From: Pseudoflavonifractor sp. 60
GTDB lineage: Bacteria > Bacillota > Clostridia > Oscillospirales > Oscillospiraceae
Direction: 5' to 3'
Length of the DNA stretch: 64,000 bases
NCBI RefSeq assembly: GCF_009911645.1
Contig: NZ_QWKI01000001.1
Location: forward strand, 62,001-126,000
Of the stretch, positions 11,047 through 12,968 are shown piece after piece. Under the pieces are notes generated by a model. That model was not told the DNA's origin and did no database searches. It was given only the letters and a program-made list of their open reading frames with translations. The position numbers and the translations under genes were made by a program. The first letter of the stretch is position 1. The number at the start of each line of letters is the position of its first letter.

Positions 11047-11820
11047 TCAGCCTAACACCCACTGGATCAGGTTCCGGACCCACCCCCACATGTGGGGAAA
11101 CTCCTGTTTCACCAGACCCCAGGTCTCCTCTACCGTATAGCCGCTCCCCGGCAGGATGGAAAACCAACCCGACGCCTCATTCGTTCCAACCCCAATATGT
11201 CCGTAGGCAGAGCCGCCAATGGCAAGACCGCCGGACCATGCGCCCCCGCCTACGGCCAGATAGTTGGAGAAGGCGCCGCCGCCCATGGCAAGCCACTGTC
11301 CCACAGCGCATCCGCCTACTGCAAAGCCGCCTATAGCCAGACCGCCCAGAGCCGCCAGCCCTACACTGACGCCGCCAACGGCCAAGAGCACTCCCGCGCT
11401 GACTCCACCCAGAGAGATCAGTCCTAGGGAACTACCGCCAATGGCCACCGCTCCTACAGCGAAGTTTCCAATCGCAATGACGCCTCTGGCCAGCTGGGGA
11501 CCAACACCCAGACGGATGTGGATCAGCGGCAGGCCAAATACCTTTACAGGACTGATATACTCATAATACACGCCCAGGAACCGGATGCCGGAGCTTTGAT
11601 AAGAGACAGTCTGAAAGTTCTCCTCCTCCAGCCCCACCAGCTGGTCGATGGACATTTGGAACAGCCTGGACAGCTCCATCAGCTTCCCCAGCTCTGGTGT
11701 ACTCTGACCCATTTCCCACTTGGACACCGTCTGCCGGGTCACACCAATTTTACTGCCCAGCTCCTCCTGAGACCAACCCCGCTGCTTGCGCAGGGTCATT
11801 AAGTGTTCCGCAAAATTCAT
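11047..11820 (-). CDS. XRE-family HTH regulator with Gly/Ala-rich repetitive C-terminus
   Basis: 257 aa. Residues 1-62 are a Cro/CI helix-turn-helix (LRKQRGWSQEELGSKIGVTRQTVSKWE). After a linker holding SSGIRFLGVYYEYISP, residues ~105-220 are a run of short repeats close to (A/S)(I/V/L)GG(x)(A/S)xG, for example AIGGFAVGGCAVG. The end has aromatic residues (WGWVRNLIQWVLG). The repeat region is too glycine-rich for a standard sensor domain and may form a beta-helix or a membrane-associated oligomer; that is inference. The gene is coupled to an upstream microprotein by ATGA overlap. Confidence 0.85.
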   Translation of the reverse strand: MNFAEHLMTLRKQRGWSQEELGSKIGVTRQTVSKWEMGQSTPELGKLMELSRLFQMSIDQLVGLEEENFQTVSYQSSGIRFLGVYYEYISPVKVFGLPLIHIRLGVGPQLARGVIAIGNFAVGAVAIGGSSLGLISLGGVSAGVLLAVGGVSVGLAALGGLAIGGFAVGGCAVGQWLAMGGGAFSNYLAVGGGAWSGGLAIGGSAYGHIGVGTNEASGWFSILPGSGYTVEETWGLVKQEFPHMWGWVRNLIQWVLG

Positions 11821-11942
11821 GGGATATCCCCCTTAAAATTGATATTATGATTTTCTCTTTTTTGCCCAGCAGCTTTGTTGATCCACAGGTCAAGAAAGAT
11901 GTCTGCAATATCTGCAAGCATATCAATTATAAAGTCAAACAT
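11817..11942 (-). CDS. 41-aa acidic/hydrophobic microprotein upstream of XRE gene
   Basis: Encodes MFDFIIDMLADIADIFLDLW followed by a basic/polar tail (KRENHNIN). The first 20 residues form a strongly amphipathic or membrane-seeking helix. TAGGAGGTAATCAT gives an ideal ribosome binding site, and the stop overlaps the XRE start (ATGA), so the two are translationally coupled. A palindrome-containing promoter lies just upstream. Similar F/I/D-rich short proteins occur beside XRE genes in other Clostridia as far as I recall; no function is known. It could be a membrane anchor or modulator for the regulator. Confidence 0.72.
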   Translation of the reverse strand: MFDFIIDMLADIADIFLDLWINKAAGQKRENHNINFKGDIP

Positions 11943-11970
11943 ATGATTACCTCCTAAGGGTCCACCCCCT

Positions 11971-12010
11971 CTATGCTTCTAACATAGCAGATTTTTCTCC
12001 CTGGCGTCAA
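11971..12010 (-). promoter_or_regulatory. Promoter and operator of the microprotein-XRE operon
   Basis: Minus-strand TTGACG, 18-bp spacer, TATGTT. An inverted repeat CTATG-N7-CATAG (11971-11987) covers the -10 and expected start site, as for an autorepressed XRE promoter. Confidence 0.55.
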
Positions 12011-12053
12011 CCCAATGCCCTTGGAAATTTGTCAACTAAAATTAACATAGACG

Positions 12054-12085
12054 AAAAAGCCCCAGCGGACAAGTCCGCCAGGGCC
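12054..12085 (-). terminator. Terminator of the AraC-type gene
   Basis: Minus-strand imperfect hairpin (GGCCCTGGCGGAC / GTCCGCTGGGGCT) followed by TTTTTC, about 30 bp after the stop of the AraC-type gene. Confidence 0.6.
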
Positions 12086-12116
12086 ATTAGGTCAACAAAA
12101 ACTAGATTTTATTTAC

Positions 12117-12968
12117 CTATTTCTTCTGAATGGGCAGCCAAACTTGAAATGCGGCTTTTTCTGCTCCAGGCTGCGATAGATAGACCTCAATATCCGGCGC
12201 CTGGGCCCACTCGTAGCCTGAGTCGGGCAGCCACTCGGTCACAATACGCCGCTCCAACTCCTGAATCGCCATGGGCGCAGGGCCCTCCCCGGAAAACACC
12301 GCCCATAGCGCGGCGGGGACGGTCCACTCGCTCATCCCCTCGGAAACCGGCGCGTCAGAAGCCACTGAAATAAAGTAAAAATTCTCCTCCAGATGACAAG
12401 TGGAAACACCTAACACCCCTTGCAACTGAGGGCCCATCAGGGGAATCAGTTCTCCCAGCCGGGGGCCCGTCTCCGCCCAAAACTTCGGAACCACCTGAAA
12501 GCTCTCCTCCTGCTCCGCAGGAATCGGGACCCGGAACCCGATAATCCGAAAGGCGTCCCGCTGCACAATTTGATACTCCATTTCAACATCTCCTTTGAGC
12601 ACAAATTTGAAGCGAATACGCGGAAAGACTTTTAGATTTACACCATCTTGTTTTGCAAGGGATGGCGCCACTCCGTGAACTGCTTGAAAGGCCCGGTTGA
12701 ATGCGGTGGGAGAGTCGTAGCCATAGCGCAGGGCCACATCCAGGACCCTCTCCCCTCCCCGCAGTTCTGCGGCAGCCCAGGTCATGCGGCGGCGGCGGAT
12801 GTACTCCTTCAGCGGAACCCCGGCCAGATAGGAGAACATCCTCTGAAAGTGGTAGGCGGAGCACCCGGCAAGCCGCCCCAGTTCCTCCGTCCGAATATCC
12901 CCATCCAGATTCGCCTCCAGATAGTCCAACGCCTCATTCCAGTTTTGTAACCCATCCATGGTACTCAC
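12117..12968 (-). CDS. AraC-family regulator with GyrI-like effector domain
   Basis: 283 aa. Residues 1-110 hold the two AraC helix-turn-helix motifs (GRLAGCSAYHFQRMFSYLAG and VALRYGYDSPTAFNRAFQ). Residues ~125-283 form an AraC_E_bind/GyrI-like small-molecule domain (YQIVQRDAFRIIGFRVPIP ... WLPDSGYEWAQAPDIEVYL). This layout resembles regulators such as Rob and multidrug-responsive activators. It probably binds a drug-like or lipophilic ligand; no obvious target efflux gene is adjacent. GGAGTGAG precedes the ATG. Confidence 0.92.
   Translation of the reverse strand: MSTMDGLQNWNEALDYLEANLDGDIRTEELGRLAGCSAYHFQRMFSYLAGVPLKEYIRRRRMTWAAAELRGGERVLDVALRYGYDSPTAFNRAFQAVHGVAPSLAKQDGVNLKVFPRIRFKFVLKGDVEMEYQIVQRDAFRIIGFRVPIPAEQEESFQVVPKFWAETGPRLGELIPLMGPQLQGVLGVSTCHLEENFYFISVASDAPVSEGMSEWTVPAALWAVFSGEGPAPMAIQELERRIVTEWLPDSGYEWAQAPDIEVYLSQPGAEKAAFQVWLPIQKK

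What the first reader, a model, noticed from the sequence alone, without database searches (positions are those of the whole stretch)
11817..12010. 41-aa microprotein translationally coupled to a Gly-rich XRE regulator
A strong ribosome binding site, ATGA overlap, and an amphipathic helix of F/I/D residues point to a real gene too short for standard calling. It may form a membrane-linked sensor with the XRE protein. The -10 is covered by CTATG-N7-CATAG, consistent with autorepression.
Basis: partly seen in the sequence, partly recalled or inferred. Interest (0 to 1): 0.6.

Follow-up and report, generated by a model that had tools for sequence, protein, structure and literature searches.

The report
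Wandering gene for a tiny protein
A gene for a tiny, probably membrane-hugging protein appears to have been acquired from another bacterium and sits in the leader of an unrelated regulator gene; relatives of it sit in front of other genes or stand alone, so it looks like a very small gene that travels on its own rather than a partner of the regulator.

Summary
The short frame is a real gene, but not a dedicated partner of the XRE regulator. Relatives (24-53 aa apart from fusions) occur in contigs titled Oscillospiraceae, Lachnospiraceae, Roseburia and others. They show purifying selection (window vs G002: 7 synonymous changes on 12.5 sites, 5 nonsynonymous on 59.5) and convincingly match no family in five libraries. 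Of 21 XRE orthologues examined, only the window's and G002's carry the frame, as an insert between the promoter and the XRE's own ribosome-binding site. The ATGA overlap is absent in G002: by alignment, an indel in the window removed the frame's earlier stop. A second insertion of the same geometry occurs in the same genus before a TPR-like gene (1 intact and 1 decayed copy in 21 loci). Between most contexts compared, DNA similarity is confined to the frame, in one subgroup also 20 nt of leader. GC3 of the core is 0.42 against 0.72 expected from neighbouring genes. Best reading: a horizontally acquired microgene for an amphipathic, membrane-surface helix, lodged in host 5' leaders. The CTATG-N7-CATAG site is in 1 of 21 promoters; other upstream blocks are in all 21. 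What the peptide does, and how the unit moves, are unknown.

The parts
11817..11942 (-). Microprotein ORF, 41 codons plus TGA; residues 1-24 are the conserved family core, the last 11-12 residues read through the old XRE leader
11950..11955 (-). Shine-Dalgarno AGGAGG of the microprotein, 7 nt before ATG
   Evidence: SD-like word before 32 of 32 members
11835..11970 (-). Approximate extent of the insert relative to orthologues without it (-10 to XRE ATG is 160 nt here, 156 in G002, 23-26 in the 13 others measured)
11828..11834 (-). XRE gene's own Shine-Dalgarno (AAGGGGG), now inside the microprotein frame
11047..11820 (-). XRE regulator, 257 aa: HTH_3 plus C-terminal AxGxx pentad-repeat region, predicted beta-solenoid
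11981..12010 (-). Promoter TTGACG-18-TATGTT with extended TG; aligns with the XRE promoter of orthologues, here upstream of the microprotein too
11971..11987 (-).
12023..12046 (-). Conserved block GTTAAN..GTTGACARATYTCC upstream of the -35, in 21 of 21 orthologous promoters; candidate operator
12090..12117 (-). 28-bp imperfect palindrome GGTAAATAAAATCTAGTTTTTGTTGACC; a site of this kind (8 or more of 14 arm matches, similar place) in 17 of 21 upstream regions; second candidate operator
12058..12085 (-). Terminator-like hairpin behind the upstream AraC/GyrI gene; lies between it and the XRE promoter

Best explanation
This is a member of a microprotein family that I find described nowhere in the libraries searched, acquired horizontally from an AT-richer donor and inserted into the 5' leader of an XRE gene, between its promoter and its own ribosome-binding site. 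Shown by comparison: family conservation and purifying selection, an insert relative to 19 orthologues, a codon usage unlike its neighbours, and a second insertion of the same geometry before a TPR-like gene. Inferred: it is transcribed from the XRE promoter and translated from its own SD; the helix (acids on one face, bulky hydrophobics on the other, usually a basic tail) lies flat on the cytoplasmic membrane; the peptide acts there on its own account, independently of the XRE. I commit to a membrane-surface accessory peptide acting on the membrane or a membrane protein; whether it benefits the host, harms competitors or is selfish is open.
For: Relatives: in the genus, 3 of 64 genomes with strong matches (all three are rows of the profile) plus one decayed copy, the other 12 matching genomes at E 0.06-0.74 being taken as chance; 18 loci in genome contigs; 11 of 397 genomes of the family of G857, two of them already known. 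Selection: window vs G002 omega about 0.09; pooled over 30 distinct sequences pS 0.61, pN 0.24, against 0.31/0.25 and 0.16/0.31 in the two shifted frames. Empty sites: 19 of 21 XRE orthologues and 19 of 21 TPR-gene loci. DNA identity in two hand-picked groups (9 and 8 members) falls to about 0.3 outside leader and frame. Codon usage: GC3 of the 24-codon core 0.42 vs 0.72 expected, 4 of 10000 simulations as low; whole frame 0.37, 0 of 10000. Transfer: 80% nt identity over 118 nt to L078, whose EngB is only 45% identical to the window genome's. Stand-alone gene: in L100 the frame lies between two terminator-like hairpins. Helix.
Against: No expression or translation data. Membrane binding rests on composition and a predicted helix. 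The low GC3 could partly reflect selection on a short gene. The XRE tree does not resolve whether G000 and G002 inherited one insertion (one origin in 23% of 200 bootstrap trees). 18 of 32 members do have a gene starting within 60 nt downstream, 7 of these 18 in one homologous context, so a link to downstream genes is not excluded. Many genomes are metagenome assemblies; L087 may be chimeric.
Confidence: 0.75

Rival explanations
1. Dedicated partner or antirepressor of the XRE protein (SinI- or AimX-like), translationally coupled to set stoichiometry, possibly membrane-tethered.
For: Shared promoter and ATGA overlap in the window; same position in G002; a relative elsewhere reads in frame into an XRE-type protein (L095).
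Against: 19 of 21 XRE orthologues lack it; no overlap in G002; most contexts listed have no XRE gene behind the frame.
Confidence: 0.08
2. Leader ORF whose only job is to raise or regulate translation of the next gene.
For: 18 of 32 members have a gene of 90 aa or more starting within 60 nt.
Against: Amino-acid sequence is conserved across unrelated contexts; 14 of 32 lack such a gene; in L100 a terminator-like hairpin follows the frame; the XRE and TPR-like genes keep their own SD.
Confidence: 0.07
3. Membrane-active peptide toxin or bacteriocin-like surfactant, comparable in shape to staphylococcal delta-lysin or PSM peptides (recalled), spread by horizontal transfer.
For: Amphipathic helix, acidic helix with basic tail; patchy distribution; decayed copies (L064, L123).
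Against: No convincing Pfam, NCBIfam, PHROG or PADLOC match; no recurrent transporter or immunity gene noticed by eye in the contexts listed; export was not examined.
Confidence: 0.25
4. Type I toxin with an antisense RNA antitoxin.
For: Short hydrophobic peptide, several copies in some genomes.
Against: No conserved sequence beyond leader and frame that could carry a shared antisense gene; five acids on the helix are unusual for such toxins (recalled).
Confidence: 0.07

Closest known systems
Conserved bacterial small-protein families in catalogues (GMSC, PMC11364881, and Enterobacteriaceae ismORFs, PMC11188072; matching passages read, not the whole texts)
   Same: Very short, hydrophobic, many under purifying selection and without functional annotation; ismORFs often next to hypothetical genes, transporters or regulators
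   Different: Here one family recurs in unrelated 5' leaders with homology limited to leader and frame; whether it is listed in those catalogues could not be checked
SpoVM-type amphipathic membrane-surface microproteins (recalled; search listing only)
   Same: Single short amphipathic helix
   Different: No Pfam match; acidic polar face; changing gene neighbours; a sporulation link was not tested
Staphylococcal delta-lysin and PSM peptides (recalled; no letters used in any call)
   Same: Short amphipathic helix with acidic residues and a basic end
   Different: No profile match; export and lysis untested
SinR/SinI and AimX antirepressor pairs (1b0n and 9sf2 are among the fold matches to the XRE's HTH part)
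   Same: XRE repressor next to a small protein
   Different: The pairing is not conserved: 2 of 21 orthologues

Membership tests
Conserved microprotein gene | Purifying selection on the amino-acid sequence | tested here: met
   Window vs G002: 7 synonymous/12.5 sites, 5 nonsynonymous/59.5 sites; 12 other pairs listed, omega 0.05-0.41 in the 11 where computable
Conserved microprotein gene | Ribosome-binding site before the start | tested here: met
   AGGAGG, 7 nt spacing in window; an SD-like four-base word upstream in 32 of 32 members
Conserved microprotein gene | Translation detected | not testable with these tools
   No ribosome profiling or proteomics at hand
XRE-small-protein regulatory pair | Co-occurrence with the XRE orthologue | tested here: not met
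   2 of 21 orthologues examined; 9 more distant homologues also lack it; 8 further matches had no locus and were not examined
XRE-small-protein regulatory pair | Physical interaction | not testable with these tools
   No complex prediction offered
Delta-lysin/PSM peptides | Amphipathic helix | tested here: met
Delta-lysin/PSM peptides | Sequence membership in a described family | tested here: not met
   NCBIfam: no match for 18 members up to E 10; Pfam: two single-member matches, E 0.14 and 0.28, to unrelated families
Delta-lysin/PSM peptides | Export and membrane lysis | not testable with these tools
   Needs experiment
Transposable element | Terminal repeats and target-site duplication | tested here: inconclusive
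   No shared sequence beyond leader and frame; a 12-bp repeat flanks the G002 insert (27 of 2000 shuffles score as high), none clear in the window (311 of 2000) or the TPR case (1931 of 2000)
Type I toxin | Antisense RNA antitoxin | not tested
   No transcript data; no conserved flanking DNA
Known RNA leader family | Rfam match at the locus | tested here: not met
   Window 11500-12500: one match below its gathering score, E 0.2, at 12051-12118 upstream of the promoter
Known anti-phage defence family | PADLOC match | tested here: not met
   0 families for 18 members

The most novel reading that the evidence does not exclude
The roughly 100-120 bp unit of ribosome-binding site plus frame is itself a mobile gene: it inserts repeatedly into 5' leaders of unrelated genes, between host promoter and host Shine-Dalgarno, and passes between bacterial families without recognisable ends, perhaps by templated or cDNA-like insertion. 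It would be among the smallest travelling genes.
Probability: 0.25. Interest if true: 0.85.

Novelty: new variant of a known kind. Interest (0 to 1): 0.6.

Why it matters
Genes this short are often not called. A conserved family that sits in the leaders of unrelated genes would change how 5' leaders and 'conserved neighbours' of regulators are read, and raises the testable question of how a gene of about 100 bp spreads without visible mobility functions.

Tried and rejected
Weak matches at about 39% identity in many genus genomes (35 of 64 genomes have some match at E <= 1) fall mostly in one other gene (YlxM by recall); in the three such loci whose neighbours were printed it lies beside an ffh-like gene: rejected as chance. 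Two weak class hits (L101, L102) overlap longer frames on the opposite strand: rejected. Left out of the selection counts: L101 and L102, L087 (same DNA as L003), L064, L122 and L123 (decayed or partial), L124 and L125 (repeats), L131 and L132 (one-residue insertion), and L081 and L085, which were never put into the set. A single-sequence search of 400 family genomes found only the window. Viral contigs, plasmids and phages gave no convincing relative (one phage match at E 7). PHROGs gave six families at E 0.066-0.59, one or two members each, taken as chance. Following L087's upstream gene through 397 genomes gave 23 with a homologue; the microprotein profile finds nothing in the 23 fetched loci, so the L087 junction (identical to G002 up to 17 bases before the ATG, then different) is unresolved. 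Fold searches of the XRE model returned the HTH part in the rows shown; the solenoid part was not searched alone. Five helix fragments as text strings occur in no held paper. A terminator-like hairpin behind L094, suspected by eye, was not found by the scan.

Weak points kept in view: omega values rest on 24 codons; the flanking repeat is notable in one of three cases; tallies include genomes used to build the profile; the groups were picked by hand and include two members (L001, L003) of the same context.

Full report
Observation. The ORF, SD, ATGA overlap, promoter and CTATG-N7-CATAG repeat are all present. The upstream AraC/GyrI gene is followed by a terminator-like hairpin, so the frame and the XRE gene probably share the promoter at 12010-11981.

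Is the frame a gene? A profile built from the window frame, its G002 counterpart and one more genus relative found 18 loci in named genomes, with record titles naming Lachnospiraceae, Parablautia, Petralouisia, Roseburia, Eubacteriaceae, Oscillospiraceae or unnamed bacteria. More came from the class (7 of 391 genomes at E <= 0.01 including the window; 2 of the 7 look like chance) and from the family of G857 (11 of 397, two already known). Some genomes have more than one copy: G858 two, G859 three with one interrupted by TGA, G868 two, G864 one plus a fragment. Members share a core like M-x-D-F-[IV]-[IV]-x-x-x-A-[DE]-I-A-[DE]-x-F-x-[DT]-[LF]-W with a variable, mostly basic tail. 31 of 32 members used have 24-53 residues, the 32nd is the L116 fusion, and an SD-like word precedes 32 of 32. 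On 30 distinct 72-nt sequences, mismatches by codon position are 0.33, 0.11 and 0.48, pS is 0.61 and pN 0.24; in the two shifted frames the values are 0.31/0.25 and 0.16/0.31. Window versus G002 gives omega about 0.09 (all). That is the signature of a protein-coding gene. No Pfam, NCBIfam, PHROG, PADLOC or PDB-sequence family matches convincingly.

Is it tied to the XRE gene? XRE matches exist in 38 of 64 genus genomes; 30 loci were fetched, 21 of them close orthologues (66-100% identical). Only the window and G002 have the frame. The -10 to XRE start distance is 160 and 156 nt in these two and 23-26 in the 13 others where the search pattern matched; in the remaining six the pattern did not match, but their aligned leaders also lack the insert. 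The insert sits between the promoter and the XRE's own SD, which is kept in both. In G002 the frame has 31 codons and stops 25 nt before the XRE start; in the window, by alignment, an indel removes that stop and the frame runs through the old leader and SD to the ATGA. I take the coupling to be secondary. The XRE tree is too weak to show whether the two carriers are sisters.

A second insertion. In G048 a relative precedes a TPR-like gene. Among 21 loci of that gene and its relatives, 1 has an intact frame, 1 a decayed one (G032, stop after 20 codons) and 19 none, including one copy in the window's own genome (several matches had no locus and were not examined). The nearest empty site, L162, has a similar promoter stretch and the same leader up to the gene's SD; the frame's stop codon abuts that SD. 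The geometry equals the XRE case.

The unit and its origin. In one hand-picked group of nine members, mean pairwise DNA identity is 0.54-0.89 from -20 to +99 and 0.24-0.35 outside; in a second group of eight it is 0.61-0.87 over the first 70 nt of the frame, 0.34-0.46 over the next 30 and the 20 nt of leader, and about 0.3 outside. The window frame is 80% identical over 118 nt to L078 and 20 of 24 core residues agree (counted by eye), whereas the EngB proteins of the two genomes are 45% identical. GC3 is 0.42 for the 24-codon core and 0.37 for the whole frame, against 0.72 expected from seven neighbouring genes (4 and 0 of 10000 simulations as low); seven relatives checked in other genomes have GC3 0.25-0.33. 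Together these favour horizontal acquisition from an AT-richer source. In L091 and L120 a similar GNAT gene lies on opposite sides of the frame, and by eye the same holds for another gene in L086 and L128. A 12-bp direct repeat flanks the G002 insert (27 of 2000 shuffles score as high), but none is clear in the window or in G048, so no mechanism of movement is shown.

Alone or in operons. 18 of 32 members have a gene of at least 90 aa starting within 60 nt behind the frame, 7 of these 18 in one homologous context; 14 do not, one of these being the L116 fusion. In L100 the frame stands between two terminator-like hairpins, so it looks like a one-gene transcript. Nine proteins behind the frame were scanned (L095 with the fused frame itself): CAT, GNAT, another acyltransferase, aconitase (in L099 the frame opens 15 nt behind the microprotein but the domain begins 71 residues in), HTH_3, weak TPR, and three without a match. 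I see no common theme and infer that the peptide acts by itself, but a link to downstream genes is not excluded.

What the product may do. The first 22 residues have a hydrophobic moment of 0.40-0.48 in eight members, reached by at most 18 of 5000 shuffles each; in the window all five acids fall within an 80-degree arc; in five other members tallied the helix carries -4 or -5 and the tail +3 to +6, and the whole window peptide has net -3. AlphaFold2 gives one helix. I infer a helix lying on the membrane surface.

The regulator. The XRE protein has an HTH_3 domain and a C-terminal pentad-repeat region predicted as a beta-solenoid with pLDDT above 90 over most of it, which suggests a soluble domain rather than a membrane one. 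Conserved promoter blocks (GTTAAN..GTTGACARATYTCC, 21 of 21) and a 28-bp palindrome (17 of 21 by the scan) are better operator candidates than the CTATG-N7-CATAG repeat (1 of 21). Autoregulation itself is inferred.

Literature. Passages of PMC11188072 and PMC11364881 describe large sets of unannotated small proteins; other papers were seen only as search listings; one search returned nothing; no held paper contains five helix strings of this family. Supplementary catalogues could not be searched, so the family may be listed there as an uncharacterised cluster.

Noticed in passing
L131:266-544; L125 and L086 downstream ORFs: A relative is fused in frame to a peptide with a GQSDGPTSIFFAGK-type motif, and a similar GGADGPTSIFIAGK motif begins an ORF two genes behind the frame in other loci; another short recurring N-terminal module.
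   Followed up: no
L091 and L120; L086 and L128: Similar neighbour genes (GNAT acetyltransferase; a roughly 110-aa unknown protein, by eye) lie on opposite sides of the microprotein in different genomes.
   Followed up: partly
L119:1501-3075 (oriented): A serine-recombinase-like gene (by eye) begins shortly behind the microprotein where relatives have another gene, suggesting an integration at that point.
   Followed up: no
window 11047-11490 (C-terminal part of the XRE gene): AxGxx pentad-repeat beta-solenoid region on an XRE regulator with no Pfam match of its own; more distant homologues at 40-48% identity occur in the genus with different promoter sequences.
   Followed up: partly
L095:99-1115: Microprotein core read in frame into an XRE protein with hydrophobic C-terminal segments (by eye); true fusion, readthrough or assembly error not decided.
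   Followed up: partly
L087:1868-1884: Same microprotein and XRE DNA as G002 but different sequence starting 18 bases upstream of the ATG; rearrangement or assembly chimera.
   Followed up: partly
L098:1501-2240: A relative lies a few bases before a chloramphenicol acetyltransferase-family gene (PF00302, context rows and 72).
   Followed up: no
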